Positions 37,313 through 52,987 of a stretch of DNA of 64,000 nucleotides are shown here, one piece after another. Position 1 is the first letter of the stretch; every line of letters begins with the position of its first letter. The notes below the pieces were generated by a model. It did not search any database. It had not been told where the DNA came from and saw only the letters and a program-made list of their open reading frames with translations. Source of the stretch: Gammaproteobacteria bacterium (GTDB taxonomy: Bacteria > Pseudomonadota > Gammaproteobacteria > Steroidobacterales > GCA-2729495); NCBI GenBank assembly GCA_024229935.1, contig JAAERX010000027.1, positions 1 to 64,000 on the forward strand. The letters run 5' to 3'. The position numbers and the translations under genes are program-made.

Positions 37313-37343
37313 CTACCTATCAAATACTTTAAGGAGAAGAATT

Positions 37344-37700: not shown

Positions 37701-37716
37701 AAAAAATACAGCTATC

Positions 37717-37754: not shown

Positions 37755-37776
37755 TACTCTATTTATTACAGAAGAT

Positions 37777-38982
37777 TTATACTGCATTCTCAATCTTCTT
37801 ACGCTCTTCACGGTCCTTAATTAAAGGCATTGCTTCAAGCACCCAGTTACCCGAAGTGCGGCGGTCCGGGCATGGAATTGCAAATGCTGTATCAGTCCCA
37901 TTGCGGGCATTAAACTCTTTAACATTGATACGCCAGCCCTTATTGTCAAACTTCTCCAGCCAGGCTCGGTAGGCCACAATTGCTTTGTCAGCAGGCATCA
38001 GCACTTCTTTGGTTGGGCTTAATGGAGTTAGTTCAGGATACAGCTGATCCAGAATCTGGATGTCCTGACCGGCAATGACCTTATTACGGGCATGGATTGG
38101 TCCATTGTGCTTGGGATCAAGCAGGAAATTACGCATGTTTAAAAAGAATATCTTCGTGCGGTGCTCACTAACCGGCTGCTCGAAGAAATACTGACGGAAC
38201 ATCTTGTCTTCTGTGAGATTGATGTACGTAGGCATAATATTCGGCCCATAGGTACCACCACCGGCATAGACATCTCTGTCCTTGTTTTGTGTATCGCCCC
38301 AGGGTGTATCTGTGTTCTTTGAAGTCTGATGACCTTTCTGCGGCAATGGTGGCCCATCAAATCTATGCATAAACCAGAAGCCCCAACCCTGATTATGATC
38401 TTCAACATCATAGTCATGGACCTTGTAGGTATCGCGATTAATCCCTGAGTGACCATGTGTCGGGTGCACAAACTCGTTATGTGCGGGGTCCAGACCATTT
38501 TCTATAGAACGCTCATAGTAATACGGCACATCCAGTACCAGCACATCATTGGCCATCCAGCCTTCCTGACCATATTCCTCAAGCTCAAGCAGCGGTGGGC
38601 GCGTCTCTTCAGGTTCATCACCTAAGAATGCGAACACGATCCCGTATTTTTCCTCAGTCGGGTATGCATCAACTTTTGCACGTGCAGGAACTTTTTCGCC
38701 ATACCCAATAGACGGAATATTCTTAACCTTACCGTCACCACCAAATTCCCAACCATGATAAGGACAGACAACACAACCATTGATAAGACGTGGCGCACTG
38801 CCACCAGACCAGGGACCACCCAGTGATGCACCCCTGTGGGTACAGGTATCACTTATGACATGTGCCACACCATCAATGTCACGAAATGCCACCAGGTTAA
38901 CACCCAGCACCATTGCCTTTTCAGGAGTGTCATAGCCAAGATCCTCACTACGAACAATGGGGTACCAAAAATTAATATACAT
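37777..38982 (-). CDS. Rieske oxygenase alpha subunit (paralogue 2)
   Basis: A 401-residue protein paralogous to the one at 34701: the same MYINFWYPI start, KVDAYPTEEKYGIVFAFLGDEPEE block and SIENGLDPAHNEFVHP iron site. Rieske motifs are CTHRGAS and CPYHGWEF. It has an insertion of about nine residues (GGPWSGGSAPRL) between the two Rieske motifs that the paralogue lacks. RBS AAGAGG stands 6 bases before the ATG. It is convergent with the operon at 34701-37700 and divergent from the cytochrome operon. No reductase or ferredoxin gene is adjacent. Confidence 0.88.
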   Translation of the reverse strand: MYINFWYPIVRSEDLGYDTPEKAMVLGVNLVAFRDIDGVAHVISDTCTHRGASLGGPWSGGSAPRLINGCVVCPYHGWEFGGDGKVKNIPSIGYGEKVPARAKVDAYPTEEKYGIVFAFLGDEPEETRPPLLELEEYGQEGWMANDVLVLDVPYYYERSIENGLDPAHNEFVHPTHGHSGINRDTYKVHDYDVEDHNQGWGFWFMHRFDGPPLPQKGHQTSKNTDTPWGDTQNKDRDVYAGGGTYGPNIMPTYINLTEDKMFRQYFFEQPVSEHRTKIFFLNMRNFLLDPKHNGPIHARNKVIAGQDIQILDQLYPELTPLSPTKEVLMPADKAIVAYRAWLEKFDNKGWRINVKEFNARNGTDTAFAIPCPDRRTSGNWVLEAMPLIKDREERKKIENAV

Positions 38983-39466: not shown

Positions 39467-42400
39467 GTGAATCGTGATCAGGCTTTGGTTCTGACCTGCA
39501 CCCTGGTTCTGCTCCTGGGGCTAAGCGTGTCCCTTATCCGGGTAGAAGAACGCCCGGATGCACCCATAGCAACTGATAGCCAGACACCGGCCCGCAGTAA
39601 AATTCAACAAAACACCAGGTCATGGCGAGCCAGGTCGCTAACCCCGGTTGCCAATATCAATCCGGATGCAGAACCACAGGCCGCCCGCGCCCGACCTTAT
39701 CGTGTTGCAACAAGTCCTGATGGCAAAAAAGCATACGTTACTCTGGCCGGCACAGAACTCAACCCGGGTGATGAAGTAGCTGTTATCGAGATTGCCACAC
39801 GCAAGGAACTCAAACGTATCCATGTCGGCAGTCAACCCTACGGGATGACAGTACACCCTTCCGGTCGCTGGCTTCTGGTCACCAACCGTTTCTCAAATTT
39901 TCTCTCTGTAATTGATATAGCAACGGATGAGGCTGTCACACAAATTCCTGTTGAGTTTTATACTGAGGACCTGGTCTTAAGTGCTGACGGCCTGACGGCC
40001 TACCTCTCTAATTTCTTTCTCAACCAGGTTCTGATCGTTGATCTGAATATTGATAACGACAGGCTGACAGGCACACAACGACAACTGGACTTTGATCGCA
40101 GTGATTTTATCCCACGCCCTGAACCAGGCGACGAAGAAGCACTGGCAGAAGAAACTGTTAACACAACAGGCTCATCACCTGATATCTATACATCACTGCG
40201 ACTCAGTTGCGGCACATCAACCTGCCACATGTATTCCGCCGGTGGTTTTATTGCCGGTCCGGATCTTGAGGAAACTTTTACCAGTGCCAAAGCACATGCC
40301 TGGCCACATGATCCGGAAACCAGTCCGCTGCTACGCGCCGTTATCTCAGAAGAACATGGTGGCTGGGCCGATACGAATACCGGCTATCACCATCCCGGCG
40401 GCATCATTTTTTCTGATCCGGCCAATGACCCCATCTACAATGCATTACAAACCTGGATAGCTGAGGGCTATGAAGGCCCCGGCATCAGTGTCGGTGACAA
40501 ACCACGTGACCTGCTTCTGTCTGCCGATCAGCAAACCCTGTATGTTGCCAATACAGGCTCACTTGATATCTCGGTAATAGACCTGCAGACACTGCGAGAG
40601 ACCCGCAGGATTGCAACACGCTCACCCGTTAATGATCTGGTATGGGCTGAGGACAAACTGGTACTGGCCACACTTGGGGTGGGCTCAGGACACCCGAAAG
40701 AACGGCACGCAGGCCATGAAAGTACAGACCGTAACCATCCGGATGCACATTTCACACTGTTTCGTGACCCTGCCAGCGGCAGCCCCAAACCATTACCCCT
40801 GGCTCAGCAGGAGCCACTGGGGCCGTTTGATGATGTGGATGGCACAGCTCAGGAAAAATTCCGTGATATCACCAATGATGTTGTACTGCTTGATCCAGAT
40901 ACACCCAGCGTTGCCCGCTACAGTGCCAATGAAAATTTTACCCGCTACACCTCAGACTCTTTTGAAGCTTTAGCCGGCGACAAGAAAGGTGATGTGCCTG
41001 CAGAACTGATGAAAGTTGTAGGTGCCTTCCCCGAACAGATAGTGACGCTGGAAGACCGCCTGTACATCACCATGGCCGGCACCTTCCAGGTACAGGAATG
41101 GCATGTAAACCCAGCAGCAGCCCCCGGCAAACGCCTGGTTCCGGGACGGGTATTTGATACCGGTTTCAAACCACTGGGCATTGCCCTCGCAGGTAAAGAC
41201 ACCCTGGTCGTCAGCAACCAGCTGGATGAATCAGTCAGCTTCATAGATTTAGAGACTGGTGAAAGCAACCAGCTGTCTTTAAGCCGTCTCTCCGAGCCTT
41301 TTCCCGCTAATGATTTTGAACGTGGTGAGTTTTTTGTACAGACCAGTATTTTCTCTGTCGATCAGGATCAAAGTTGCGTGCACTGCCACTACCGTGACAC
41401 CTCCGATGGCAAAAAATGGAGCGTCAGCCAGGTCATGGGGCAAAACCGGGCGGGTGACGAAGTTACCGGTGGCAGCCGTGAGGTACCTGATCTGCGTGCA
41501 CTGGTTCATAAGGTACCGTTCTTTGTTGAGGGCATTTTAACGGTCGACGAACCACTGACCATGATGATGGAACACAACCCACTGGTTGATTTCGCCGGCA
41601 AAACTCCGGTTGGTGATTTCAGCGGCATCGTGGCAAGTGATGCAGAAAAGAAACTCTACCCCAGGTCAGCCGATGCCATTATCGTTGCCACGGGACGTGC
41701 ATGGGCCGATGCAAATGTAAAGGTTGTTGATCTGACCAAGCGCCGTGACCTGTTTTTCCGCAACCAGACCAAGCGCTACTTCGGTAAAGAACTCAACCTG
41801 CGCGACATGCAACGGCTTATAGGCATTTACCAGTCTGCCGAACCACGCCTGCTGCCAAACCCACTCGACCCATCTGATCCAATGGTCCGTCATGGTCGTG
41901 AACTTTTTGAGAGCCCCCAGGTGGGCTGTGCGGGCTGCCACCCGGCACCAACCTTCACAGACAAAACCAATGTCTACAATCAGAATAAAAGTTTCCGCCC
42001 GCTGGTCAGCACTGTGCCACGGGACAATATTCATACCCTGATCAGTGCAGACTATCTCGATGGCATTAACAGTTTCGAACGCTACTGGGATCCGGAGGAC
42101 GCAGGCCGTTTTGAAGAGATAGAAGGTAACTTCGTGGCCCCCTCACTGCATGGCCTCTGGGCCCGGCCACCACGGTTCTTACACCACGGCAACGCCATTA
42201 GTCTGCGTGAAATAGTCAGCACCCCCGAGCATCCGGCACTACAACGTATGCCATTTGAACGCCTGCAAGCCAACCGGCCGGGTGGCTGGGAACTGGGGTT
42301 AAACGAGCTGGACGGGTTGTTTGATACCCACGGCACCACATCACATCTTTCAGTCTGGGACATCGCGTGTCTAATAAAATACTTACGCTCTATCGAATAG
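39467..42400 (+). CDS. YVTN beta-propeller / c-type cytochrome protein
   Basis: A 977-residue periplasmic protein: one signal anchor (residues 7-24), then YVTN-type propeller repeats such as PYRVATSPDGKKAYVTL, PYGMTVHPSGRWLLVTN and PRDLLLSADQQTLYVANTG, then a C-terminal cytochrome region. Haem sites: an unusual CX4CH (C248-H254), CVHCH at 637 and CAGCH at 821, the last in a MauG/di-haem peroxidase-like context. It starts with GTG after TTAGGAG. It is the first gene of a nine-gene operon with overlapping or abutting genes. It may be a sensor or electron acceptor; the substrate is unknown. Confidence 0.8.
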   Translation: MNRDQALVLTCTLVLLLGLSVSLIRVEERPDAPIATDSQTPARSKIQQNTRSWRARSLTPVANINPDAEPQAARARPYRVATSPDGKKAYVTLAGTELNPGDEVAVIEIATRKELKRIHVGSQPYGMTVHPSGRWLLVTNRFSNFLSVIDIATDEAVTQIPVEFYTEDLVLSADGLTAYLSNFFLNQVLIVDLNIDNDRLTGTQRQLDFDRSDFIPRPEPGDEEALAEETVNTTGSSPDIYTSLRLSCGTSTCHMYSAGGFIAGPDLEETFTSAKAHAWPHDPETSPLLRAVISEEHGGWADTNTGYHHPGGIIFSDPANDPIYNALQTWIAEGYEGPGISVGDKPRDLLLSADQQTLYVANTGSLDISVIDLQTLRETRRIATRSPVNDLVWAEDKLVLATLGVGSGHPKERHAGHESTDRNHPDAHFTLFRDPASGSPKPLPLAQQEPLGPFDDVDGTAQEKFRDITNDVVLLDPDTPSVARYSANENFTRYTSDSFEALAGDKKGDVPAELMKVVGAFPEQIVTLEDRLYITMAGTFQVQEWHVNPAAAPGKRLVPGRVFDTGFKPLGIALAGKDTLVVSNQLDESVSFIDLETGESNQLSLSRLSEPFPANDFERGEFFVQTSIFSVDQDQSCVHCHYRDTSDGKKWSVSQVMGQNRAGDEVTGGSREVPDLRALVHKVPFFVEGILTVDEPLTMMMEHNPLVDFAGKTPVGDFSGIVASDAEKKLYPRSADAIIVATGRAWADANVKVVDLTKRRDLFFRNQTKRYFGKELNLRDMQRLIGIYQSAEPRLLPNPLDPSDPMVRHGRELFESPQVGCAGCHPAPTFTDKTNVYNQNKSFRPLVSTVPRDNIHTLISADYLDGINSFERYWDPEDAGRFEEIEGNFVAPSLHGLWARPPRFLHHGNAISLREIVSTPEHPALQRMPFERLQANRPGGWELGLNELDGLFDTHGTTSHLSVWDIACLIKYLRSIE

Positions 42401-43446
42401 CGACAGCAACACTCGGACTGATTCTGCTTGCGACTGCCGCACACCTGGTTCGCAACCTGCCCGAGTCACAACTGGGTGCTACTGCAATACCAGGCGACCC
42501 GGCTGCCGGTAGTCTTGTTGAGACTATGCGGCCGCTTATGGGTACCGAGTTTGCTATCACAGTCTGGGCAGCAGCCGGACGCGAACCTGCAGCCAGCAAA
42601 CTGATAGCTGAAGTGTTTGCTGACATAACAGAACTCGAACAACAGATCAGTAGCTGGCTACCCAATAGCGAAACATCCAAAGTAAATGCTGCTGCCGGGC
42701 AAGCACCCGTAACTATCAGTCCTGAACTCCATGAGCTGCTAACCATCTCCATACGCTGGGCACGACGTACCGAGGGTGCTTTCGATATGACCGGTGGACC
42801 TTTGTATGAACTCTGGGGGGAGGCGCGTAAGCAAAACACCCTGCCCTCTGCAGAAGCCATTCAGTCAGTCATGCCGGTGGTGGGTTATCAGAAGGTTGAG
42901 TTGACTGATGACACAGTCCGGTTACCCACAGCCGAAATGAAGCTGGGTTTTGGTTCCGTAGGTAAAGGCTATGCAGCTGATCGTGCGGCAGAAAAACTGC
43001 TGGCCGCAGGCTTTACTAATTTCATTATTGATGCAGGTGGTGACCTGGTTGTATCAGGGCAGCGCGGTAACACCCCCTGGTCGGTAGGTATTCGTCACCC
43101 ACGTAGTAATGAGCTGCTTGCCACCACAGAACTGACAGACATGGCTATTGCCACCTCGGGTGATTACGAACAGTACCTTATAGCAGACGGTAAACGCCTT
43201 GGTCACATCATCGACCCACGCAACGGGTGGCCGGTTGAGACTGTTGCAAGTGTCGTTGTCATTGCAGAAAAAGGCGCAGATGCCGATGCACTTGCTACGG
43301 GTCTGTTTGTACTTGGCCCTGATAAAGGGTTGGCACTGACTGAAAAAATTTCATCTGCAGAAGCGCTATTCATGATGGGTAATGGCGTTATTCACCACTC
43401 TGAAGGCCTCACGATTAAAGATGGCGTACTGGAGCACACACCATGA
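42367..43446 (+). CDS. apbE: FAD:protein FMN transferase
   Basis: A 359-residue ApbE protein with an N-terminal anchor helix (residues 8-27). Family marks are MRPLMGTEFAITVW, EGAFDMTGGPLYELWG, GSVGKGYAADRAAE, INFIIDAGGDLVVSG-like residues (FTNFIIDAGGDLVVSG) and ATSGDYEQY with GHIIDPRNGWPV. ApbE attaches FMN to a Thr or Ser in RnfG, RnfD and related proteins on the periplasmic side. Such targets are encoded later in the same operon. The GTG start overlaps the previous gene by 34 bases. Confidence 0.93.
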   Translation: MSNKILTLYRIATATLGLILLATAAHLVRNLPESQLGATAIPGDPAAGSLVETMRPLMGTEFAITVWAAAGREPAASKLIAEVFADITELEQQISSWLPNSETSKVNAAAGQAPVTISPELHELLTISIRWARRTEGAFDMTGGPLYELWGEARKQNTLPSAEAIQSVMPVVGYQKVELTDDTVRLPTAEMKLGFGSVGKGYAADRAAEKLLAAGFTNFIIDAGGDLVVSGQRGNTPWSVGIRHPRSNELLATTELTDMAIATSGDYEQYLIADGKRLGHIIDPRNGWPVETVASVVVIAEKGADADALATGLFVLGPDKGLALTEKISSAEALFMMGNGVIHHSEGLTIKDGVLEHTP

Positions 43447-46400
43447 ACCCCACGACAAGCAAAATAAACATAGCCCTGCTCCTGTGTTTTCTGTTTGCCC
43501 TGCTGCTCAGTCAGCTTTGGCAGGGTGACTCACCCCCTGTTGAACCCCCTGCGAGCAGCAGTGCTTCCCGGCAGCTTTTTGACACTGAAATAGCCGCATT
43601 GCTCGATCGTCGCTGCAGTAACTGTCATGGCGTTTCTGCAGAAGAGTACGCGCACCTGGAAGAAGACCCGTCGAACAGACTCTTGCTGCGCTGGCCGGTT
43701 GATACTAGCGGCCGAATCTCCACCCCGGAATTACGGGATGTCGCCTATGAGCGTTCCAGCCAGACTCAGACATATGATGGCAGTAAATTTGTACCCATTG
43801 ATACAGGCAACCCGGCACTGGCAAGTAAAATGCTGCTCGCCCCTCTGGCAGATACGTATGCCGGCGTCAGCATGGTTCATCCGGTAACCTTCAGTTCACC
43901 CACAGATTCAGATTTTGTAATGCTGCAGCGCTGGGTACAGGCAGAGATTGATGCACAACCTGCCCCAGCCAGGGCAGTCAATACCCCCGCCGAGGATTTC
44001 TTTATTACAGAGGTCACACCCATACTGGATCGTAAAGGCTGCTTTGGTTCTAATTGCCATGGGCTCGGAGCCTTTAATGATCTCAAGCTGCACCCCGGCG
44101 TACCTGCACTTGAAGGACGTTTCACCCCTGAAATGCATCATCAGAACCGTATCTCCATGCTCGGATGGGGCGGTGCACAGGTACGCATGGTGCAACTCTC
44201 AGGTGATATCACCCAGTCTCGCCAGTTAGTAAAAAACATACCTATTGCTGAGGGCGGTATTCTGCATAAAGGTGGTAATGAATTTTTTAATGTGGGCGAC
44301 CCTGACTACGAGACACTTCTTAAGTGGATAACACTTGAGAGAGTGGAAGCCATTCAGCGTACAAATGCCGCACTGGGTGAAGAACGCGGTATCGTCTTTG
44401 TCCGTCGTCCCCGCAACCTGCCCCAACGTTATTTTGAAGATAATGATTTCCAGCCAGGCGGCGACCTGATCTGGTTGCATGACGGTAAGGAGGTCAACCT
44501 GACTGCAGGCCTCCACCCTGACGGTCCTGCAGATATTCGTACACCCGATGTCAGTTATGACGCTCAACGGGTGGTGTTTGCCATGCGCCGCAATGAACAG
44601 GAAGCCCTGAATATCTGGGAGCTGGAACTCGACACACAGGAAGCACGGCAACTCACCTTCTCTGCCGACCCGGACATACACTTTCAGGACCCACACTACA
44701 CCCCGGATCACGAAGACGCTTCGGGTGAGCAACTGGATAAAATGGCCATAGCCCTGGTCTCAAATATCTCCGGGGAATGGGCTGCCGTCAGTCCCGAAGG
44801 CATCCTGGGTGAAGCTGAAGGTGGCAACCGGCAAACCATTAAAGACACTGAACTTACTGTCAGGCCTGGCACCTACAATGGTCATAGCATCCGCATCGTG
44901 CGTGGCACTAACCAGGGCGAGGTCAGAAAAATTACCCGCCAGACCACAGGAAAAATTGATGTTGATAAACCTTTTAGCAAACCCATTGATGCCACCACTC
45001 ACTATGTGATCGGAACCAGCCAGCGGTATGCGCCCAGTTACGACCTGTATCGCATATCACTGGCTGCCAAAGGTCAGGAACGTGAAACCTTTGACGCCAC
45101 CCTGGCACGCCTGACTTTTGGGCTCGGGCAGATTCGCCGACCCAGCATGCGCAGCTCCGGTGAAATCATGTTTACAACGCTACGTACCGGCTGGCAGGCT
45201 GATCGTCCCTTTTACAACGGAGCAGTCTTTCGCACCTTTTACAACGGTGGCAACTACCACACGCACTACGGCAACCGCTCGGTCATACCTGTACTGGCCG
45301 ATAACAATGAATTGCCAAACGGACTTGAAGTACGCATAGGCCGGGATGCGGACTCTTACTGGGGTGGCACACTCATTGTTTCAGACCACCAGTTTGGACC
45401 CACAATTGACCCGGCCAATCCAATTGATGATCTGAACCATCCCTATGCCAAAGGTATGCCGGAACACGGCATGCACCAGTTTTTCCGTGGCTGGGTTCCA
45501 CTTGACGAAACTGTCACCACACAAGGCATCTCTGCCGGAGGTGCTTACCGTGATCCTTACCCGGCACCGGATGGATCCATACTGGCAGCCTACGCACCCG
45601 GCCCGCTTGACCTTTCCGACCCGGATGCTGCACCTGACTTCAATATCGTTCGCCTGAGTGCAAACCCTTCCCTGCAATCTGCTGATGGTCTTAAAGGGGG
45701 CACAGTAAAACGTACTCCGGTCACCGGCACTAAACAAAGCAGTGAGCTGTGGCCACGACCTGTAGTGGTAAGAGCAAAAGTACGTCTTAAAAAATCACCC
45801 AAATGGGCAACAGACCTGTTTGGCAAGCCGGGAACAGCACAGGGACTACCAAACTACAGCGTAGACACACCGGCACAACTGATTGTCTTTGATCTCGTGT
45901 TACTGGATACATTTTTTGAGCAGAACCTGCCGGCCGGACAACGCACCCTGCTGGGTGAAACATGCACCGATTGCAAAGACCAGGTACGTTTTGCCCGAAT
46001 CATAGGTGCACAACCACTGACTGAAGGTGAGACAGGCCAACCGAAACGATACGTTATTGCAGAAGTACCACTGGAAACAGACGGCTCTTTCCATGTTGTT
46101 GTACCTTCATTAGTCAGCTTTGATATCCAGTCACTCAATGCTGAACGTATGGCACTGCACTCCCCCAACCGCTGGCTGTATACATTACCGGGTGAGAAGC
46201 ACACGCTCTCCATCCCGCGCATGCTTTACACACAAACCTGTGCAGGCTGTCATGGCACCTTATCGGGTGAACACACCAACTCGTTTGGTCGTTTTGATGC
46301 AATAACCAGTGCCTCCAAAACCATGGCAGTCTGGGATAACAAAGAGCACAAAAGTCTGCCGCCGGCAAATTACGACACTGACTCAAAACAGTACCTTGTA

Positions 46401-46733
46401 GCTCCGTACTCTGTTGGCTTTGAAGAGGATATACAACCCATACTGAGTGAACGCTGCATGAGTTGTCATCAGGGCAGCAATGCATCAGGCGGACTGGATC
46501 TCAGCACAGACAATATTTATAGCGAGATACGCAAGCGGGTTGATTATCAGCATGCACTGGCAATACGCAGCCCGTTACTTGAAACACTACTGGGTCGTGA
46601 ACTTATGGCACCGGAATCCCTTGCCGGCAATACCAGCGAGGCACATAAAGATGTATTAACCCCGGAAGAATTACAGCAGCTGATTCGCTGGATTGATCTG
46701 GGCGCAGCACAAACAAGGGTGACACTGCAATGA
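43443..46733 (+). CDS. Large tetrahaem periplasmic protein
   Basis: A 1096-residue protein with an N-terminal membrane anchor (residues 8-26). Four haem-binding motifs: CSNCH at 58, an unusual CX4CH at 200 (C-F-G-S-N-C-H), CAGCH at 933 and CMSCH at 1005. The central 600 residues contain a TolB/WD-like propeller region (DVSYDAQRVVFAMRRNEQEALNIWELEL). Haem domains at both ends resemble small planctomycete-type cytochrome modules (RLLLRWP..., GGLDLSTDNIYSEI). The start ATGA overlaps the apbE stop. It is likely to exchange electrons with the other cytochromes of this operon. Confidence 0.8.
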   Translation: MNPTTSKINIALLLCFLFALLLSQLWQGDSPPVEPPASSSASRQLFDTEIAALLDRRCSNCHGVSAEEYAHLEEDPSNRLLLRWPVDTSGRISTPELRDVAYERSSQTQTYDGSKFVPIDTGNPALASKMLLAPLADTYAGVSMVHPVTFSSPTDSDFVMLQRWVQAEIDAQPAPARAVNTPAEDFFITEVTPILDRKGCFGSNCHGLGAFNDLKLHPGVPALEGRFTPEMHHQNRISMLGWGGAQVRMVQLSGDITQSRQLVKNIPIAEGGILHKGGNEFFNVGDPDYETLLKWITLERVEAIQRTNAALGEERGIVFVRRPRNLPQRYFEDNDFQPGGDLIWLHDGKEVNLTAGLHPDGPADIRTPDVSYDAQRVVFAMRRNEQEALNIWELELDTQEARQLTFSADPDIHFQDPHYTPDHEDASGEQLDKMAIALVSNISGEWAAVSPEGILGEAEGGNRQTIKDTELTVRPGTYNGHSIRIVRGTNQGEVRKITRQTTGKIDVDKPFSKPIDATTHYVIGTSQRYAPSYDLYRISLAAKGQERETFDATLARLTFGLGQIRRPSMRSSGEIMFTTLRTGWQADRPFYNGAVFRTFYNGGNYHTHYGNRSVIPVLADNNELPNGLEVRIGRDADSYWGGTLIVSDHQFGPTIDPANPIDDLNHPYAKGMPEHGMHQFFRGWVPLDETVTTQGISAGGAYRDPYPAPDGSILAAYAPGPLDLSDPDAAPDFNIVRLSANPSLQSADGLKGGTVKRTPVTGTKQSSELWPRPVVVRAKVRLKKSPKWATDLFGKPGTAQGLPNYSVDTPAQLIVFDLVLLDTFFEQNLPAGQRTLLGETCTDCKDQVRFARIIGAQPLTEGETGQPKRYVIAEVPLETDGSFHVVVPSLVSFDIQSLNAERMALHSPNRWLYTLPGEKHTLSIPRMLYTQTCAGCHGTLSGEHTNSFGRFDAITSASKTMAVWDNKEHKSLPPANYDTDSKQYLVAPYSVGFEEDIQPILSERCMSCHQGSNASGGLDLSTDNIYSEIRKRVDYQHALAIRSPLLETLLGRELMAPESLAGNTSEAHKDVLTPEELQQLIRWIDLGAAQTRVTLQ

Positions 46734-47245
46734 AATGGTGGGGCGGCATCATTGTTGCAGTTATTTTATCGATAACGGTAGCCGCTGCCGTGCACTGGAC
46801 GTTTAACAATACCGAGCACAGCAATATGGCAGAAGAAAACTGTTCGCTGTGTCATGCACGTTCTGCCCTGCAAACACACACTCAGGAATTTGTCGCAGAA
46901 GAACATGGTCCGATAGCACTGGCAGACCGCAGCAGCTGCCAGGGGTGCCATGAAGACGCCGCCGAGGAATGTGATGACTGTCATCTGGAACAGGAACCCA
47001 AGTGGCACACCAATGATTTTCGTAACCCGGCTCTGGGCAACATTGAAACCCGTGAACATATTCGTATTGCCAATATTCACCAGGACTCCTGTGCCGAATG
47101 TCACAACACAACCTACATGACGCTGTGTGCTAACTGTCACCGCCCGGAAGAAGACTGGCTGGGCCGCGGCAGCAGCACCTGGGAACAGCCTGCAGCTCCT
47201 GAACAAACCTATAAGGAACAGCAGGCACCTGAGGTGCAACCATGA
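46730..47245 (+). CDS. Pentahaem c-type cytochrome
   Basis: A 171-residue protein with an N-terminal helix (residues 4-21) that anchors or exports it, and five CXXCH motifs at residues 38, 70, 81, 121 and 133. The extra His residues between motifs can act as axial ligands, as in multihaem cytochromes of the NapC/NrfH or c3-like kind, but the spacing does not match one I can name. A Pro/Gln-rich tail ends it. Start and stop are both coupled (ATGA) to its neighbours. It is well placed to take electrons from RnfG/RnfD flavins. Confidence 0.9.
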   Translation: MKWWGGIIVAVILSITVAAAVHWTFNNTEHSNMAEENCSLCHARSALQTHTQEFVAEEHGPIALADRSSCQGCHEDAAEECDDCHLEQEPKWHTNDFRNPALGNIETREHIRIANIHQDSCAECHNTTYMTLCANCHRPEEDWLGRGSSTWEQPAAPEQTYKEQQAPEVQP

Positions 47246-48420
47246 GTTCCCCAAACTGGGTTTTTTCTTCAGTACGTGAGGCTTTATATGGCCGCCAGGT
47301 GCCACGGTTAAAGACTACCCGTGACTCAGCCATTGTTTCAATCCCAAGCCCGGGTCAGGTACGGTTAATTAGCAGCGGACTCACTCCTCTGGTTAAAGTT
47401 GGAGAGACTGTCGAGGGCGGCAAGCTGATTGCACGCAGCCCTGTTAGTGAACGATTCCAGCGACGGGTGCATGCCTCATTAACGGGAATCATTACAGCCA
47501 TACATGATGATTACATCCTTATTGAAGGCGAACTTCCGGAACGACCACCACTGACCCATGGTGTACCCGAATGGATTGCCCCCGAGGCAATCCGTGACAC
47601 CGCACGCGAGGCAGGCCTGATCGGCATGGGTGGCGGCATGTTTCCTACTTACGTGAAACTCAGTCACCCGGCACCCATAGAAGTGGTACTGATTAATGGC
47701 TGTGAGAGTGAGCCCTACCTGACCTGTGATCACCGGGTGCTGACAGAACATCGTGACCAGGCCAACTGCGGAACTGAACTGGCCATGCGTGCAGTCGGTG
47801 CGAAGCAAGGCATGGTTGTAGACCGGGAAATTAATTACCCGGGCGGTTATGAACGCCTGCTTATACGTGACACGCTGGGGAAAGTAGTGCCCAAACGCGG
47901 ATTGCCCCGCGATGCCGGCGTACTGGTCATGAATGTGCAGTCCGCCCTGGCCCTGCATGAAGCCGTCTGCCTGGGCCGTCCCTTAATAGACCGCGTGGTC
48001 ACCGTTGACGGCGATGCGGTAGGACGTCCAGGTAACTACCGGGTACCTATAGGTACTGAGCTAAGTACATTACAGGAAGTATGTGAGATCGACCCGGCAA
48101 AGACAGCCACACTACTTACCGGCGGCCCTATGATGGGTACCGCCGCAGAAGCATCAGATACCGTAACCGGTGGTACCGGTGCCGTCATTGCACTGACCAA
48201 AGAAGAACTCAGTGAACATGAAGCACAACCCTGCATACGCTGCGGGCAATGCATGGAAGTCTGCCCCTATGATTTACCAGTAGCACACCTGGTAGCTAAC
48301 CCGCACAAGGTCGTACTCGACTGCATCGAATGTGGTGCCTGTCAGTTTACCTGCCCTGCACGTATACCCCTGATAGATGAGCTGCGTAAAGCCAAGAAAG
48401 TGGTGACAGCATGGGACTAG
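47242..48420 (+). CDS. rnfC: RnfC-like electron transport complex subunit
   Basis: A 392-residue cytoplasmic-face subunit. The N-terminal part has the RnfC/NqrA fold (SPGQVRLISSGL, VHASLTGIITAI), then a Nuo51-like FMN/NADH domain (GLIGMGGGMFPTYVKL, LINGCESEPYLTCDHRVL) and two [4Fe-4S] motifs, CIRCGQCMEVCP at 331 and CIECGACQFTCP at 361. It lacks the long C-terminal repeats of E. coli RsxC. In Rnf complexes it receives electrons from NADH or ferredoxin. Its partner RnfB is absent here. Confidence 0.92.
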   Translation: MSSPNWVFSSVREALYGRQVPRLKTTRDSAIVSIPSPGQVRLISSGLTPLVKVGETVEGGKLIARSPVSERFQRRVHASLTGIITAIHDDYILIEGELPERPPLTHGVPEWIAPEAIRDTAREAGLIGMGGGMFPTYVKLSHPAPIEVVLINGCESEPYLTCDHRVLTEHRDQANCGTELAMRAVGAKQGMVVDREINYPGGYERLLIRDTLGKVVPKRGLPRDAGVLVMNVQSALALHEAVCLGRPLIDRVVTVDGDAVGRPGNYRVPIGTELSTLQEVCEIDPAKTATLLTGGPMMGTAAEASDTVTGGTGAVIALTKEELSEHEAQPCIRCGQCMEVCPYDLPVAHLVANPHKVVLDCIECGACQFTCPARIPLIDELRKAKKVVTAWD

Positions 48421-48872
48421 TCATTACCCGCAAGCGTGACCGGTTAACAACCGTAGCCATACTGGCAGTGATTTTATTACTGGACCTGGCATGGCCCGCC
48501 CCGGACCGTGAACGACAAATAACCCAGAGCCTGCTGGGTGCTGATGGTGAACGCATCGAACTTAAAACCGGCCCGGCATTCCGGGTGGGTTCACGCTGGC
48601 TATTGTTCTTTGATCACCCGGGCAAAGTGGGGCCGATTCGCGGCGCTGTTTTAGTTGAGGATGACAACATCCACTCATTGCATTTGTTTGAGGCGCACGA
48701 AGGCATCAACCGGGATGCCTTTGCTGACCCAACGCTGGTGCAATCCCTTGCGGGTCTGCCGGCAAAAGCACCCGTAGAAATTGATGTGATTACAGGCGCC
48801 ACTATTTCCAGCCAGATGCTGGCCGATGCGGTAAATGAAACACTTGTGCAGTGGAGGTCTACAGTCCGATGA
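48411..48872 (+). CDS. RnfG-like FMN-binding protein
   Basis: A 153-residue protein with an N-terminal helix (residues 14-30) and an FMN_bind domain. The flavinylation motif is VITGATISS, with Thr131 the likely FMN attachment site. It is shorter than typical RnfG (about 200). It starts ten bases before the rnfC stop. The FMN would sit on the periplasmic side and pass electrons to or from the cytochromes. Confidence 0.88.
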   Translation: MGLVITRKRDRLTTVAILAVILLLDLAWPAPDRERQITQSLLGADGERIELKTGPAFRVGSRWLLFFDHPGKVGPIRGAVLVEDDNIHSLHLFEAHEGINRDAFADPTLVQSLAGLPAKAPVEIDVITGATISSQMLADAVNETLVQWRSTVR

Positions 48873-49540
48873 CCGAAACAAAGCACACAACACCAACAAG
48901 CAAACAAATCTTTGCGGAAGAGATGCACTTTGGCAGGGTGGCACTCAACCTGGGTTTCATTACTGAAGAAGAACTGGAGCGCGCTCTGGGTGCACGTGAG
49001 GAATTGCATGCAGCAGGTGTCGATACCCTGATCGGCGACATCATGCTCGATCGCCAGTTGCTGACATCTGCACAGTGCGAACAAATACTGACAGAACAGG
49101 ATCGTCTGCTCAGGGAAGCAGGATTACTAAGCCGGGTTCGGGCAGCACCCACCATTGGTTTAGTTGTTGCGGGTATGGTGCCCGTGTTGAGTCACATGTC
49201 ACTCAGCAGTGTGCTGACATGGTCAGGCGCATTACTTATAGGCTTTGCCATCAGTAATCGCAGTCCGTGGCGCTGGGTAGGCATAGGCTGGCTCGCCAGT
49301 ATTATTGCGCCCGGCACCAGCATGGCATCCATAGGCAGTAGCGGCAGTTTGCTGCATGGCTGGCGCAGACCGCTGGGCGCTGTATTACTCGGCACCTGCC
49401 TTGCTTTAATACCACTGCCAGAAACCCTGCACCAGGCAGGCCCGTTATTTCTGCTTGCAGCAGTTGTACTTGCCCTGTTCAGAAAACCACCGACAAAGAA
49501 GAATACACAGGATAAAAATCATAAGGGAGAACAGGCATGA
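48869..49540 (+). CDS. Unrecognised membrane protein with GspE-N-like domain
   Basis: About 223 residues from the ATG at 48869, which overlaps the RnfG-like stop. The first 85 residues hold two related helical repeats (HFGRVALNLGFITEEELERAL and IGDIMLDRQLLTSAQCEQIL) like the MshEN/T2SSE N-terminal domain. Four or five transmembrane helices follow (about 95-205). There are almost no Cys residues, so it cannot hold the iron-sulfur site seen in RnfA/RnfE. It replaces a standard Rnf membrane subunit by position, with unknown function. Confidence 0.7.
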   Translation: MTETKHTTPTSKQIFAEEMHFGRVALNLGFITEEELERALGAREELHAAGVDTLIGDIMLDRQLLTSAQCEQILTEQDRLLREAGLLSRVRAAPTIGLVVAGMVPVLSHMSLSSVLTWSGALLIGFAISNRSPWRWVGIGWLASIIAPGTSMASIGSSGSLLHGWRRPLGAVLLGTCLALIPLPETLHQAGPLFLLAAVVLALFRKPPTKKNTQDKNHKGEQA

Positions 49541-49935
49541 CTCCCTATGACGCCATTTTCTTAGCGCTGCTGGCCAGTCGCTGCATCAACCGCCCACAAC
49601 AATGGTGGCTGGTCGTACTCGCACCCCTGCTGTCATTTGTTATTGGCAGTTTGGAGCCACTGGGCAGGCTTACTGAACCCCTCACCGCACTGTTTGCAGT
49701 GGCGCTTGCACCGCGCTGGGCCCCGGTTGGCCTGTTACTGGTCGTACCTGAATACAGCAGCCTGACAGAAAGTATTGTGGCTGCAGCCGCCTGGTTTTTA
49801 CTGGATGCACTGTTCGGCTCATTACTAAAACGTGTGAATGAAGATGCCGTGACTCCCCACTTACGAGGCTGGCCGATACAGCTACTGATACTCGGGGTTC
49901 TTTACTACAGCTTTTTACCGTTGGTGTGGATATGA
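49537..49935 (+). CDS. Unrecognised small membrane protein of the Rnf-like operon
   Basis: A 132-residue, very hydrophobic protein with about four transmembrane helices. It has one Cys (residue 16), so it lacks the paired Cys of RnfA/RnfE. The start overlaps the previous stop (ATGA) and its stop overlaps the rnfD start. No family was recognised. Confidence 0.7.
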   Translation: MTPYDAIFLALLASRCINRPQQWWLVVLAPLLSFVIGSLEPLGRLTEPLTALFAVALAPRWAPVGLLLVVPEYSSLTESIVAAAAWFLLDALFGSLLKRVNEDAVTPHLRGWPIQLLILGVLYYSFLPLVWI

Positions 49936-50876
49936 GCCTATTTACCGGACCCTTAATCCACAGCGGTAAGACCAACCGCATGATGATGACACTGGTGCTG
50001 GTCAGCCTCACGCCTGCACTCATAGCCGCTGTTCTGCATTATGGTTTTACTGCAGCACTGTTAGTTATCTGTGCACTGGCAGGCACCTGGTTAACCGAAC
50101 TGGTGCTCGACCGACAGCATGCGTTTGACGGCAGCGCACTCGTAACCGGCCTCCTGTTTGCCCTGTTGCTACCGGTTAGCGCACCGTGGTGGCTGGCATT
50201 TTTAGGCGGCGTACTGGCAACCGGTTTAGGCAAACATGCCTTTGGTGGTCTGGGGTGTAATCTCTTTAACCCGGCGGCATTATCACGCGTTATTCTGATG
50301 GCACTTATACCAGGTGCCTGGTTTGTATCCACAGCCGTCACCATGGATGGCATCACCACTGCCAGCCCTCTTGCCAGAGAAAGCAGCATGCTGGCACCCA
50401 CCCTTGCAGAGTTACTCAGTGGCAGTACACCGGGCACCTTAGGTCAGGCAGCACCCCTGGCCGTACTGGCAGGTGGCTTACTGCTGGCAAGTCTGCGCAC
50501 CATAGACTGGCGCATACCGTTGACCTTTCTTGCGGCCGTCGCATTTCTTGCACTGCTACTACCCGCCAGTGAACGCATTGCAGGTCATGCACCGTGGTTA
50601 CTGGGCAACCCCTTAATACACATTATCGGTGGTGGCACATTACTGGCTGCGTTCTTTATGCTTACCGACCCGGTAACTGCACCGTTTGCACCCGTTGGGC
50701 GAATCATCTTTGCCATCATTGCTGCACTGGCCATGATGCTGATACGTTATTACACGCCCTACCCTGATGGTGCAGTACTGGCGATATTGATTGCGAATGC
50801 ATGTGTGCCGTTGATTGATCGGTTTACACTGGAGCTTGGTGCAGCACCGAGGATAAAAACCCCACAAAGCTTTTAG
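49932..50876 (+). CDS. rnfD: RnfD-like flavinylated membrane subunit
   Basis: About 314 residues from the ATG at 49932, coupled to the upstream stop. NqrB/RnfD family: TGPLIHSGKTNRMMMTL at the start, several helices, LGCNLFNPAALSR, and the FMN site DGITTASPL, where Ser145 takes the position usually held by Thr. ApbE can use either residue. It would form the membrane core that links flavins across the bilayer. It is the last gene of the operon and is followed by an inverted repeat. Confidence 0.88.
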   Translation: MSLFTGPLIHSGKTNRMMMTLVLVSLTPALIAAVLHYGFTAALLVICALAGTWLTELVLDRQHAFDGSALVTGLLFALLLPVSAPWWLAFLGGVLATGLGKHAFGGLGCNLFNPAALSRVILMALIPGAWFVSTAVTMDGITTASPLARESSMLAPTLAELLSGSTPGTLGQAAPLAVLAGGLLLASLRTIDWRIPLTFLAAVAFLALLLPASERIAGHAPWLLGNPLIHIIGGGTLLAAFFMLTDPVTAPFAPVGRIIFAIIAALAMMLIRYYTPYPDGAVLAILIANACVPLIDRFTLELGAAPRIKTPQSF

Positions 50877-50919: not shown

Positions 50920-51019
50920 GGTGCCAGTTATTAGTTTATTAGTTTATTAGTTTTTTCACTACAAATCAGCGCCTGCAACGGCTACCAAATAAAAAACTAA
51001 TAAACTAATGACTGGCACC
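50920..51019. repeat. Long imperfect inverted repeat with 8-base subrepeats
   Basis: The left arm (50920-50956) starts GGTGCCAGTTATTAG and carries three TTAGTTTA-type units; the right arm (50991-51019) is complementary except for one unit fewer and one base change. TGTAATGGTGCCA occurs twice at the start (near 50879 and 50914). It lies between convergent rnfD and the kinase gene and overlaps the last codons of the kinase. It may act as a bidirectional terminator or be a miniature mobile element. Confidence 0.65.
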
Positions 51020-52987
51020 AACGCCTGAAGCTGTCTGACTATCCTCAGTGGCCGCCATAGGAAAACTGACAGCTACCGTAGTGCCATGACTGATCTGGCT
51101 GGAGACCTCAATCCGGCCACCATGCTCTTCAACAATACGGCGACAGATAGCCAGCCCAAGCCCCACCCCGTCCTGCTTGGTCGTATAAAAGGGTTCCCAT
51201 ATTTTGATCAGGCTTTCGGTGGAAATACCCTTACCATCATCAATAACTTTAACCATGGCGCCGACAGGCACCTGCTCTGTTGGGTCATCCGACATGACTG
51301 CCGAAATTTTTATAATGATGTTGTTACTTTCCGGTTTTGCATCAGCAGCATTAAGAATCAGATTAATTAATAGTTGTCGTAATTGGTTAAAGTCACCCTT
51401 AACAGAGGGCACGCCCGGATCCGCATCAACTTCCAGCTGCAAACCACGGTGGCGGAGTTCTGCGCCCACCAACGCGACGACACTTTTTACGATAGCTGCC
51501 AGTGAGCTTACTTCGGGCTGAGGGGTCTGTGTCTCAGCAGAGAACAACTGCAATACTTCTTCCATGCGATGCACATCAGCCAGCAGATTATGCGCCAGTG
51601 TTCTTGATGCGGTGTCTTCATCCAGTTCACTGATGGCCTGAACCTTATTCCGGATCGCACTCAGCGGGTCTCTGAGTTCCTGCAGCAGGCCACTGGTTAA
51701 CTGTCCCATTGATGATGATTTCTCTGCATCATCCAGACCGGTCTGCAATCCCTGCAGCCTGCTCTGAGTCTGCTCAAGGCGTTCGGCCATCAGCTGAAAC
51801 TCACGTGATAAAGCATCAAGTTCATTCACGGGACCGGGAGAAGCTACCCGCATAACGGCGCCACGATCAGTCGCTATACGACTCATGGCCTTACGTAATT
51901 CTGCTACGGGTCGGGCCAGGTTGTTACTCACCAGCACACCAATCCATACGACCAGGGCAAGTACCAGGGCGATGATGACAGAAAGATAAATGGTCAGGTT
52001 ACGCACCGGCGCCCCGAACTCATCCAGCGGATGGGAAACAATCAGGCGCCACTGGTTAACAGCGCTATCTGCACTAACAACAACAGGCTCTACCGAGATT
52101 ACAGCATCAGGTGTCTCAAAATGCAGAGCCTGCGGGTCTTCACCCAGCACCTTGCTAACCTCAGCCGCACTAAAGTCATCACTTAAACCACGCTCACTGC
52201 CCAGGCTGTAACTCTCATACTTCTCTTCTGTCGGACCTACATAGCCAAGATAGGTACCCGTGGCATCCACAAAGAATGCTTCTGTACCTACCCGCAGTGG
52301 CTGAATCAATTCAAAAATCTGTTTGGCACCCAAATTAAGGATCAGGCTGCCGGTACGCTCACCACTTTCACCAAACAATGGAATACCAAAACGCAACACC
52401 GGACGGAATGGAATTTCTACCCGGCCACCCTCCATGTTGAGATCCATGGGTGATTTATAGAGTTGTCCGGGAGACAGTTTTAATGACTCCTGCACATAGT
52501 AACGATCACTCTTGTTTTGCAGTTGTGCAACGGGCACTACTTTAGCCTGCCCCTCTTCCACATCAAGGCGCACCACTTCCAGGCCATTAGTATCAATATA
52601 GCGAACCTGATAGAACGATCGCTTACCCTGGGAAAAAAGGATCAGTTCCTGCTCTACCTGCCTGCGCAGCAGATCCACCTGCTCTTGCTGGCCTGCACTG
52701 CGTGCTTCAGCAAGATCATTCAGGAGTCGGCCCTTACTGAGAAAACGCAGATCCGTCTCAACAGCATTAAGAAATTCTTCCAGCTCACGGGTGCGCATGG
52801 AAGTATCAACCACTTCACGCTCAATCGCTGCAGTTCTCATCGAAGTCTGCATATTCACAATTGTGAACAGAGCGATGCCGGCAGCAGGCAAAATAGAAAG
52901 CGCCATCATAGGCACAATAATCTTGCCTTTCAGGGTCATATTTTTTAGCCGATCAAGTGCGCGCATGTAGCTGCCCCATTGCGCCAT
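51005..52987 (-). CDS. Sensor histidine-kinase-like protein with altered H-box
   Basis: A 660-residue membrane protein: helix near residues 26-46, a large periplasmic double-Cache-like sensor (about 50-330), a second helix near 336-356, HAMP, coiled coil, dimerisation region and C-terminal ATPase. ATP-site boxes are intact: LINLILNAADA (N), DDGKGIS (G1) and GVGLGLAICRRIVEEHGG (G2). The H-box reads SGLLQELRDPLSAI, with Gln where the phospho-accepting His is expected. No response regulator is adjacent. It is convergent with the Rnf-like operon. Confidence 0.85.
   Translation of the reverse strand: MAQWGSYMRALDRLKNMTLKGKIIVPMMALSILPAAGIALFTIVNMQTSMRTAAIEREVVDTSMRTRELEEFLNAVETDLRFLSKGRLLNDLAEARSAGQQEQVDLLRRQVEQELILFSQGKRSFYQVRYIDTNGLEVVRLDVEEGQAKVVPVAQLQNKSDRYYVQESLKLSPGQLYKSPMDLNMEGGRVEIPFRPVLRFGIPLFGESGERTGSLILNLGAKQIFELIQPLRVGTEAFFVDATGTYLGYVGPTEEKYESYSLGSERGLSDDFSAAEVSKVLGEDPQALHFETPDAVISVEPVVVSADSAVNQWRLIVSHPLDEFGAPVRNLTIYLSVIIALVLALVVWIGVLVSNNLARPVAELRKAMSRIATDRGAVMRVASPGPVNELDALSREFQLMAERLEQTQSRLQGLQTGLDDAEKSSSMGQLTSGLLQELRDPLSAIRNKVQAISELDEDTASRTLAHNLLADVHRMEEVLQLFSAETQTPQPEVSSLAAIVKSVVALVGAELRHRGLQLEVDADPGVPSVKGDFNQLRQLLINLILNAADAKPESNNIIIKISAVMSDDPTEQVPVGAMVKVIDDGKGISTESLIKIWEPFYTTKQDGVGLGLAICRRIVEEHGGRIEVSSQISHGTTVAVSFPMAATEDSQTASGVGASH

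What the first reader, a model, noticed from the sequence alone, without database searches (positions are those of the whole stretch)
39467..50876. Nine-gene operon coupling a reduced Rnf-like complex to multihaem cytochromes
The sequence shows ApbE, RnfC, an RnfG-like FMN protein and RnfD with three cytochrome proteins carrying 12 haem motifs in all, nearly all genes overlapping by a few bases. RnfA, RnfB and RnfE are absent. In known Rnf complexes those subunits take electrons from ferredoxin and form the membrane iron-sulfur site. The layout suggests a cytoplasmic donor feeding RnfC, covalent flavins crossing the membrane, and periplasmic cytochromes as acceptors. Related flavin/cytochrome gene sets are known, but I do not recognise this exact composition.
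Basis: partly seen in the sequence, partly recalled or inferred. Interest (0 to 1): 0.85.

Follow-up and report, generated by a model that had tools for sequence, protein, structure and literature searches.

The report
Hydrazine-synthase-like complex wired to NADH module
A nine-gene operon joins a relative of the anammox enzyme hydrazine synthase to a stripped-down Rnf-type membrane module that probably supplies it with electrons from NADH; it recurs in uncultured bacteria of several phyla, and its substrate is unknown.

Summary
The operon is real: nine genes, 39467-50876, all eight junctions overlapping, 12 haem motifs (10 CxxCH, 2 CX4CH). Two "cytochromes" are homologues of hydrazine synthase (HZS): gene 1 is a fused beta-gamma relative, gene 3 an alpha relative (PDB profile hits 6.5e-24, 5.9e-13, 1.1e-29; Foldseek top hit HZS alpha). 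Catalytic signatures of HZS (alphaTyr591, gammaCys165) are missing, so it is not filed as hydrazine synthase.

The layout is conserved in a 16-member clade spanning six named phyla. A sister operon type replaces RnfC by an NADH-binding NuoF-like protein, fused to RnfD in 5 of 9 loci, plus a 2Fe-2S/4Fe-4S subunit. This points to NAD(P)H as the electron source.

"RnfA absent" needs correcting: the 132-aa membrane protein folds, in prediction, like RnfA/NqrE, but has no conserved cysteines. RnfB is missing from the operon; RnfE was not found there. The genome also carries a canonical rnf set.

Most likely function: NADH to RnfC/RnfD/FMN protein, to the pentahaem cytochrome, to an HZS-like periplasmic reductase. 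The substrate is unknown; a nitrogen oxide is a weakly supported guess. My searches found no description of this combination.

The parts
39467..42400 (+). 'BC': YVTN beta-propeller + di-haem CCP/MauG-type protein (977 aa), homologue of fused hydrazine synthase beta-gamma; haem motifs at C248-H254 (CX4CH), C637-H641, C821-H825
   Evidence: NF052342 HZS beta-gamma fusion E 1.4e-14, far below its cut-off; profile of 30 relatives: 5c2v_B 6.5e-24, 5c2v_C 5.9e-13
42367..43446 (+). ApbE, FAD:protein FMN transferase with N-terminal hydrophobic segment (359 aa)
   Evidence: (PF02424, 286 bits)
43443..46733 (+). 'A': homologue of hydrazine synthase alpha (1096 aa), with extra N-terminal two-haem region; haem motifs C58-H62, C200-H206 (CX4CH), C933-H937 (alphaI-like), C1005-H1009 (alphaII-like)
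   Evidence: PF18582 31.9 of 26.6 bits; 5c2v_A 1.1e-29, sole PDB match at E <= 0.01; Foldseek top hit 5c2v_A 8.5e-26
46730..47245 (+). 'c5': membrane-anchored or secreted pentahaem c-type cytochrome (171 aa)
   Evidence: (Cytochrome_C7, 22.8 bits, below cut-off 24.8)
47242..48420 (+). RnfC (392 aa): PF01512 flavin/NADH domain and two 4Fe-4S motifs, no TM segment found
   Evidence: TIGR01945 268.9 bits; 14 operon RnfCs form one clade, 97/100
48411..48872 (+). RnfG/NqrC-like FMN-binding protein with TGAT flavinylation motif and one N-terminal hydrophobic segment (153 aa)
   Evidence: PF04205; [ST]GAT in all 12 rows
48851..49540 (+). Membrane protein (229 aa) with MshE-type N-terminal motif and a hydrophobic half; not assigned
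   Evidence: NF053729 26.4 bits, below cut-off 38; no profile match to RnfA/E
49537..49935 (+). 132-aa membrane protein with RnfA/NqrE-like predicted fold but no conserved cysteines
49926..50876 (+). RnfD/NqrB family membrane flavoprotein (316 aa); flavinylation-site region reads DGITTAS
51005..52987 (-). Sensor histidine kinase (660 aa); a kinase with a similar sensor half flanks the operon in 5 relatives; probable regulator

Best explanation
The operon encodes one machine: an HZS-like periplasmic multihaem enzyme complex (A + BC, seven haem motifs) with its own electron supply. NAD(P)H is oxidised in the cytoplasm at the flavin of RnfC. Electrons pass to the RnfD membrane subunit, cross the membrane through RnfD flavin(s) and the flavinylated RnfG-like protein (loaded by ApbE), reach the pentahaem cytochrome and then the HZS-like complex, which reduces a small substrate. 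P0008, a cysteine-less RnfA/NqrE-like protein, packs against RnfD without carrying the intramembrane [2Fe-2S] cluster. Shown: gene content, conserved order, homology to HZS, replacement of RnfC by NuoF and NuoF-RnfD fusion in the sister type, absence of two HZS catalytic residues. Inferred: direction of flow, cofactors, that all parts form one complex, reductive chemistry. The substrate is a guess; a nitrogen oxide such as NO or hydroxylamine is my first choice, with low confidence.
For: Conserved operon in the type I clade. Protein distances of eight operon genes are strongly correlated in the 26 of 28 pairs that had enough loci (r 0.80-0.96; 0 of 999 shuffles reach the value in 25 pairs, 3 of 999 in one). 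Operon RnfCs form a clade apart from canonical RnfC (97/100). In type II operons a NuoF-like protein plus a 2Fe-2S/4Fe-4S protein takes the place of RnfC, and NuoF is one ORF with RnfD in 5 of 9 loci (L051, L053, L056, L057, L058; Pfam PF01512 + PF10589 shown for the proteins of L036, L051 and L058). HZS homology. N-terminal hydrophobic segments on A, BC, c5, ApbE and the FMN protein, none on RnfC. Precedent for proposed one-way NAD(P)H to extracytosolic flow in NQR/RNF-like systems (PMC11334425 section 9; PMC8238504 passages). PMC12607021 passages: three HZS haems titrate between about -360 and -30 mV, the fourth was not reducible, so NADH (about -320 mV, recalled) could in principle reduce some of them.
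Against: No activity, cofactor or complex has been measured. RnfD in the window reads TTAS, not the [S/T]GA[S/T] motif, so its covalent FMN is uncertain. ApbE is missing from the operon in L042-L045 and L037 and was not detected in L052 and L056; P0007 is missing in L042 and L043. Two Thiotrichaceae loci break the pattern: L052 has BC alone and L053 has no A within 10 kb upstream. In L046 the RnfC-RnfD block precedes BC, and in L057 the 2Fe-2S gene lies on the other strand at the contig start. Type II has no FMN_bind protein that I could find, so that step is not universal. Direction of electron flow is not shown. Nitrogen-oxide evidence is weak and post hoc.
Confidence: 0.6

Rival explanations
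1. The complex runs outward to inward: A-BC oxidises a periplasmic nitrogen compound or other donor, and the Rnf-like module uses the membrane potential to push electrons to NAD+.
For: Rnf and NQR relatives are reversible, ion-coupled machines (established knowledge); the genome has a separate rnf set, so this set may do a different job.
Against: P0008 lacks conserved cysteines for the intramembrane cluster, no RnfA/E-like part was found in type II, and di-haem CCP-type proteins act as reductases (established knowledge).
Confidence: 0.13
2. A-BC is a peroxidase or MauG-like protein-modifying enzyme; the Rnf-like module simply supplies electrons for peroxide defence or maturation of a partner.
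For: BC's C-terminal half belongs to the di-haem CCP/MauG group.
Against: A was seen beside BC in 15 of 16 type I members, L046 (short contig) being the exception; the place where CCP/MauG carry Trp reads P[FYLM][FYL][VLIFT]EG in 23 of the 24 type I and II rows of the alignment, L065 being the exception (the placement is by motif, not by structure).
Confidence: 0.13
3. It is an unrecognised hydrazine synthase (anammox outside Brocadiales).
For: Homology to all three HZS subunits and fused beta-gamma as in Scalindua (PMC10732223 passages).
Against: Scores far below NCBIfam HZS cut-offs (38.4 of 800, 53.2 of 1250 bits); no Tyr within 7 residues after the alphaI CxxCH in 24 of 24 A proteins; no Cys between the gammaI and gammaII sites in 21 of 30 BC proteins including the window; no HAO-family Pfam match in the genome, although that search had no positive control.
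Confidence: 0.05
4. Flavin/cytochrome conduit for general extracellular reduction of metals or humics, with A-BC as terminal reductase.
For: ApbE/FMN_bind systems serve extracellular electron transfer in other bacteria (PMC8238504 and PMC11334425 passages).
Against: No outer-membrane component was recognised among the nine products; the flanks were clustered but not searched for porins; A-BC is an HZS-type pair.
Confidence: 0.09

Closest known systems
Hydrazine synthase HzsABC of anammox bacteria (PDB 5C2V)
   Same: alpha-type protein plus beta-propeller/di-haem protein; four haem motifs at places corresponding to alphaI, alphaII, gammaI, gammaII; beta-gamma fused as in Scalindua
   Different: no Tyr591 or Cys165 counterpart, three extra haem motifs, far below HZS cut-offs, and a dedicated NADH/flavin/pentahaem electron supply in the operon
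HZS homologues, clades I-IV of Hagglund et al. 2025 (PMC12758564)
   Same: co-located alpha and fused beta-gamma homologues outside anammox bacteria; alphaTyr591 not kept (clades I-III)
   Different: their clades I-III lie beside FG-GAP/CRTAC1 genes and keep a Trp at the gammaHis144 place; no Rnf or ApbE linkage appears in the main text (0 'apbe'; the 2 'rnf' hits are in one reference). Their sequences were not compared here
NQR/RNF-like flavinylated systems (PMC8238504, PMC11334425)
   Same: RnfD/NqrB-type membrane protein joined to a NAD-binding module, with FMN_bind protein and ApbE (type I), lacking a full Rnf set; one-way flow to outside acceptors proposed
   Different: NAD module is RnfC (type I) or NuoF-like (type II), not PF00175; the acceptor side is a pentahaem cytochrome and HZS-like complex; type I keeps a cysteine-less RnfA-like protein
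Canonical Rnf (RnfABCDGE)
   Same: RnfC and RnfD above cut-off; RnfG-like FMN protein; RnfA/NqrE-like predicted fold in P0008
   Different: no RnfB, no recognised RnfE, no conserved cysteines for the intramembrane cluster; operon-linked to cytochromes
MmcA-type multihaem cytochrome with Rnf in methanogens (recalled)
   Same: Rnf module joined to a multihaem cytochrome
   Different: there a full Rnf set is present and no HZS-like proteins (recalled, not tested)

Membership tests
Rnf complex | RnfC | tested here: met
   TIGR01945 268.9 bits of 245.95
Rnf complex | RnfD | tested here: met
   TIGR01946 224.7 of 207.05
Rnf complex | RnfG | tested here: inconclusive
   FMN_bind PF04205 met; TIGR01947 only 16.6 of 102 bits
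Rnf complex | RnfB ferredoxin-type subunit in the operon | tested here: not met
   none of the nine proteins is RnfB by family cut-off; an rnfB lies in the canonical set on another contig
Rnf complex | RnfA | tested here: inconclusive
   P0008 has no Pfam or NCBIfam match. The six best VIA-align chains are RnfA or NqrE (Z 7.3-6.2, 127-129 residues, rmsd 3.5-3.8; next row Z 4.6), below the tool's caution level for helical bundles (chain names). hhalign score 29.8, probability 32%, against at most 18.3 in 40 column shuffles; with only two RnfA/E sequences it gave nothing
Rnf complex | RnfE | tested here: inconclusive
   no family match in the operon; hydrophobic half of P0007 gives no profile match; its fold was not predicted
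Rnf complex | Cysteine ligands of the intramembrane [2Fe-2S] | tested here: not met
   no conserved Cys column in the 10 sequences of the P0008 family or the 10 of the P0007 family
Hydrazine synthase | alpha, beta and gamma homologues together | tested here: met
Hydrazine synthase | NCBIfam equivalog cut-offs | tested here: not met
   38.4 of 800 (NF052339), 53.2 of 1250 (NF052342), 61.5 of 560 (NF052340)
Hydrazine synthase | alphaTyr591, iron ligand four residues after the alphaI CxxCH His | tested here: not met
   no Tyr at +1 to +7 in 24 of 24; residue role from PMC12758564 and PMC12607021
Hydrazine synthase | gammaCys165, third covalent haem link | tested here: not met
   no Cys between gammaI His and gammaII site in the window and in 21 of 30 rows in all
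Hydrazine synthase | makes hydrazine from NO and ammonium | not testable with these tools
   needs enzyme assay
NQR/RNF-like systems (Meheust et al.) | PF03116 membrane domain fused to PF00175 | tested here: not met
   no PF00175 listed; PF01512-type modules instead
NQR/RNF-like systems (Meheust et al.) | ApbE and FMN_bind in the cluster | tested here: met
   window; in type II ApbE but no FMN_bind was found
HZS homologue clades I-III (PMC12758564) | FG-GAP/CRTAC1 neighbour gene | tested here: not met
   none of the nine operon genes; wider flanks not scanned for it
HZS homologue clades I-IV (PMC12758564) | falls inside one of these clades in a tree | not tested
   their sequences were not at hand

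The most novel reading that the evidence does not exclude
A second class of hydrazine-synthase-type catalysis outside anammox: an NADH-driven periplasmic enzyme that couples or reduces nitrogen oxides (NO, hydroxylamine) through a rebuilt active site, spread by horizontal transfer through seven named phyla, and using a cysteine-less RnfA/RnfD flavin path, not an iron-sulfur cluster, to bring electrons across the membrane.
Probability: 0.15. Interest if true: 0.92.

Novelty: new variant of a known kind. Interest (0 to 1): 0.73.

Why it matters
HZS homologues outside anammox bacteria have no known function or electron source in the papers I saw. This operon, with its two interchangeable NADH-side modules, gives a direct lead to both: it says where the electrons probably come from and which small set of genes must be expressed to test the chemistry. 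It also offers a natural test of how little of Rnf is needed to carry electrons across a membrane, since the intramembrane iron-sulfur cluster seems to be lost.

Tried and rejected
Hydrazine synthase itself: rejected on catalytic residues and cut-offs. P0008 as an unrelated membrane protein: first taken so from sequence (hhalign probability 0.3% against two sequences), revised after the predicted fold and a larger RnfA/E alignment. P0007 as RnfE-like: profile score 15.0, within its shuffled controls (up to 17.8); left open. Mapping gammaHis144 by alignment to 5c2v_C: the slice profile did not match 5c2v_C but three di-haem peroxidases at E 0.005-0.05, so the position is by motif only. Plasmid origin: 59 plasmid records match part of gene 1, none covers 80%. 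Host nitrogen metabolism: the HAO-family search gave nothing, but no control genome rang either. c5 against PDB: one weak hit, a cytochrome c3-type chain (E 0.056). Generic HZS_alpha-domain proteins of the same order (35 of 147 genomes with any match, the window's own included): among 15 neighbourhoods fetched, 14 show no BC-profile hit at E 1e-4; the fifteenth (L078) has one weak hit to a frame that also hits the A profile; 5 of the 15 hold an ApbE gene. Among the 29 short loci scanned before, one (L025, genome G089) has adjacent A- and BC-profile hits (2e-16; 2.9e-11 and 1.3e-12), not followed further. VIA-align lists other helical chains for P0008 from Z 4.6 downward. Rows dropped before trees: BC tree without L036 (same as L060), L068, L070 and three second copies under 800 aa (L061, L062, L065); RnfC tree without the type II proteins found by the RnfC query (L054, L057, L059) and without RnfC proteins found by the NuoF query (L041, L048, L055) and L036. 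In the c5 count one spurious frame of L051 without haem motifs is ignored.
Full report
What is there. Nine ORFs run on the + strand from 39467 to 50876, and each overlaps the next. In order: BC (977 aa), ApbE (359), A (1096), pentahaem c5 (171), RnfC (392), FMN_bind protein (153), P0007 (229), P0008 (132), RnfD (316). Haem motifs: 10 CxxCH and 2 CX4CH. In relatives the two CX4CH sites align with CxxCH in some rows (for A: L041, L044, L045; for BC: the type II rows).

The host. The window is contig C27 of a 2.7-Mb genome, 99.5% complete. It is in the same class as G479, whose contig C64 has the same length (177,311) as the record titled Gammaproteobacteria bacterium N3S-Bin_5 (L060). The genome also has rnfA, B, C, D and G in a row on C51, followed by cytochrome oxidase and regulator genes and an rnfE about 8 kb further on (names by sequence reading, RnfA/E by PF02508 and RnfC by TIGR01945). 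So the operon is an extra, specialised set.

Two of the cytochromes are hydrazine-synthase homologues. Single sequences already pointed there. With a profile of 24 A proteins, HZS alpha (5c2v_A) is the only PDB match at E <= 0.01, with E 1.1e-29; the aligned stretches are colinear, two of them significant alone. With a profile of 30 BC proteins, HZS beta (6.5e-24) and gamma (5.9e-13) are the second and third of six matches; the best is a YVTN surface-layer propeller. The AlphaFold model of A (24 sequences, pLDDT 83.9) has 5c2v_A and 5c2v_D as the two best Foldseek hits (8.5e-26 and 5.4e-24; TM 0.57 by target length), followed by TolB propellers at 7e-10 or weaker.

It is not hydrazine synthase by its known signatures. 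Hagglund et al. 2025 (PMC12758564: abstract, sections 7 and 8, other passages) name the key residues. alphaTyr591 sits four residues after the alphaI CxxCH His: no Tyr lies within seven residues there in 24 of 24 A proteins. gammaCys165: no Cys lies between the gammaI and gammaII sites in 21 of 30 BC proteins; L047, L050, L055, L061 and L062 have one each, and the four most distant rows have six each. At the motif where CCP/MauG carry Trp, 23 of 24 type I and II rows have a Glu after an aliphatic, aromatic or Thr residue; this placement is by motif only, because the slice profile did not align to 5c2v_C.

Distribution. In 147 genomes of the order, apart from the window's own A the best match to A is 37% over 108 residues, and the two congeners G015 and G052 have none at E <= 0.001. 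In 369 genomes of the class, three (the window's own, G228, G479) match A at E <= 1e-20. In 398 genomes of the phylum sample only the window's own matched BC at E <= 1e-20. One scan of the 84,980-species collection with the BC alignment gave 32 loci, all titled MAG. In the BC tree of 32 rows, 16 form the type I clade (100/99) and 10 the type II clade (100/100).

Type I (window, L037 = G228, L039-L050, L055, L065). Record titles and taxonomy labels name Planctomycetota, Verrucomicrobiota (Akkermansiaceae), Acidobacteriota, Bacteroidota (Maribacter), Pseudomonadota (Parabeggiatoa) and Myxococcota; L039 is unassigned. Besides the window, eight loci hold the whole stretch in the order BC-(ApbE)-A-c5-RnfC-FMNb-(P0007)-P0008-RnfD: L039, L041 (RnfD interrupted by unknown bases), L042, L043, L044, L045, L048, L049. 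ApbE is missing in L042-L045 and L037; P0007 in L042 and L043. Six (L037, L040, L047, L050, L055, L065) end at a contig edge and are colinear up to it. L046 is rearranged: RnfC to RnfD come before BC, and its A was not seen before the contig ends. c5 has five CxxCH in most and three in L044, L045, L048, L049.

Type II (L051-L054, L056-L060, L063; L060 = G479). Usual order A-BC-ApbE-FGE-c5-RnfD-NuoF-Fe2S2. Pfam confirms Complex1_51K + NADH_4Fe-4S, Fer2_4, FGE-sulfatase and RnfD for G479, and the RnfD-NuoF fusion for L051 and L058. RnfD and NuoF share one ORF in L051, L053, L056, L057 and L058, i.e. 5 of the 9 loci where both were seen; ApbE and FGE share one ORF in L051, L057 and L058 (Pfam for the last two). 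Exceptions: L052 shows BC only; L053 has no A within 10 kb upstream and about 5 kb between c5 and RnfD-NuoF; ApbE was not detected in L056; in L057 the Fe2S2 gene is on the other strand at the contig start. No FMN_bind protein, P0007 or P0008 was found in type II. RnfC and NuoF share the PF01512 domain and cross-match weakly in these searches; the tree separates them.

Meaning of the two types. The same HZS-like pair, c5 and RnfD are served by RnfC in one and by a NuoF-like NADH module in the other. In a tree of 42 sequences, 14 operon RnfCs form one clade (97/100) beside 14 canonical RnfCs, and the type II proteins fall with five NuoF-like proteins (100/100). The shared slot is a PF01512 flavin/NADH domain. 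A fusion of NuoF to RnfD is direct evidence that the two work together. This is my main argument for NAD(P)H as the donor.

Transferred as a unit. The window's BC is closest to L039 (73% identity) and then to a Planctomycetota MAG (L040), not to the other Gammaproteobacteria in the tree. Pairwise distances of eight operon proteins correlate at r 0.80-0.96 in the 26 pairs with at least six common loci; shuffles reached the value 0 of 999 times in 25 pairs and 3 of 999 in one. This shows joint inheritance, not function.

The Rnf-like module. The FMN protein keeps [ST]GAT in 12 of 12. RnfD keeps [ST]xA[ST] in 20 of 20 operon rows, but the Gly varies and the window reads TTAS, so a covalent FMN there is uncertain. 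P0008 had no family match. Its predicted fold (10 sequences, pLDDT 82.1) gives RnfA chains as the two best Foldseek hits, though with E 0.39 and 1.0. VIA-align puts six chains on top (Z 7.3-6.2, 127-129 of 132 residues, rmsd 3.5-3.8), with the next, unrelated row at Z 4.6. A PDB search with the genome's own canonical RnfA names those chains: three RnfA and three NqrE. The tool warns that helical bundles may reach such Z by chance, but all six come from the very complexes the operon resembles. A profile comparison with 34 RnfA/E sequences gives a score of 29.8 (probability 32%, 46 columns) against at most 18.3 in 40 column-shuffled controls. No cysteine column is conserved. I therefore read P0008 as a cysteine-less RnfA-like subunit, with about 80% confidence. 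P0007 stays open.

Regulator. The kinase at 51005-52987 has relatives, by its sensor half, beside the operon in L040, L041, L042, L043 and L045 (E 5.4e-123 to 1e-14).

Substrate. The host has cytochrome-cd1-type and haem-copper genes on the same contig (C27 111-134 kb; NCBIfam did not name the cd1-type or the haem-copper proteins). Among ten gammaproteobacterial carriers, 6 have a cd1-type match at E <= 1e-60 against 31 of 184 other genomes in a class sample: one-sided Fisher p 0.004, or 0.012 without the window, which raised the question. Several carriers are close relatives, G228 and three Thiotrichaceae have none, and of 16 other carriers only two (L045, L049) have one. So NO chemistry is a lead, not a finding.

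What is in print. PMC10732223 (passages) reports hzsABC-like genes in Phycisphaerae and other MAGs, suggests a broader enzyme family, and has no 'rnf' in the main text. PMC12758564 treats co-located homologues from RefSeq genomes, with no ApbE in the text. PMC11334425 (sections 8, 9 and passages) and PMC8238504 (passages) describe NQR/RNF-like systems and have no 'hydrazine' in the main text. PMC12607021 was seen in passages. No held paper has 'hydrazine synthase' with 'flavinylat', or with homolog, Rnf and ApbE. The library lacks most subscription papers, so this is not proof of absence.

Verdict. A conserved, horizontally spread operon that couples an HZS-homologous complex to a reduced Rnf-like, probably NADH-driven, membrane module. 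New combination of known kinds; function inferred.

Noticed in passing
L003 5062-17960 (G000 contig C51): The canonical rnf set is interrupted: rnfABCDG, then cytochrome oxidase genes and regulators, then rnfE about 8 kb away, next to an endonuclease-III-like (nth) gene; names by sequence reading.
   Followed up: partly
G000 C27:111-134 kb (L106, L107), about 60-80 kb from the operon: Cytochrome-cd1-type proteins (PF02239 501.7 and 404 bits), two PF00115 haem-copper proteins, and a molybdopterin oxidoreductase with iron-sulfur and NrfD-like subunits.
   Followed up: partly
L065 1158-9045 (-), L066, L067, L069: A second, distant A-BC pair in Myxococcota; in L065 it lies beside a type I operon, and L066/L067 come from the same assemblies as L048/L049 by accession prefix and isolate name.
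   Followed up: no
L074, L076, L077, L078, L080: Generic HZS_alpha-domain proteins in the window's order lie in stretches that also hold an ApbE gene, with no clear BC partner.
   Followed up: partly
L025 991-2927 (-) (genome G089): Adjacent frames matching the A and BC profiles in another genome of the order.
   Followed up: no
L061, L062 (Verrucomicrobiota): BC homologues next to a second YVTN/CCP-type protein and two FGE-type genes; no A or Rnf part was found in the locus.
   Followed up: no
type II loci, e.g. L057 7967-9898, L058 6480-8195: ApbE fused to a formylglycine-generating-enzyme-like (PF03781) domain; role unknown.
   Followed up: no
window 34671-38982 and 53138-53992: Three Rieske-type oxygenase genes and a phytanoyl-CoA-dioxygenase-like gene flank the operon (by sequence reading); no link to it seen.
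   Followed up: no
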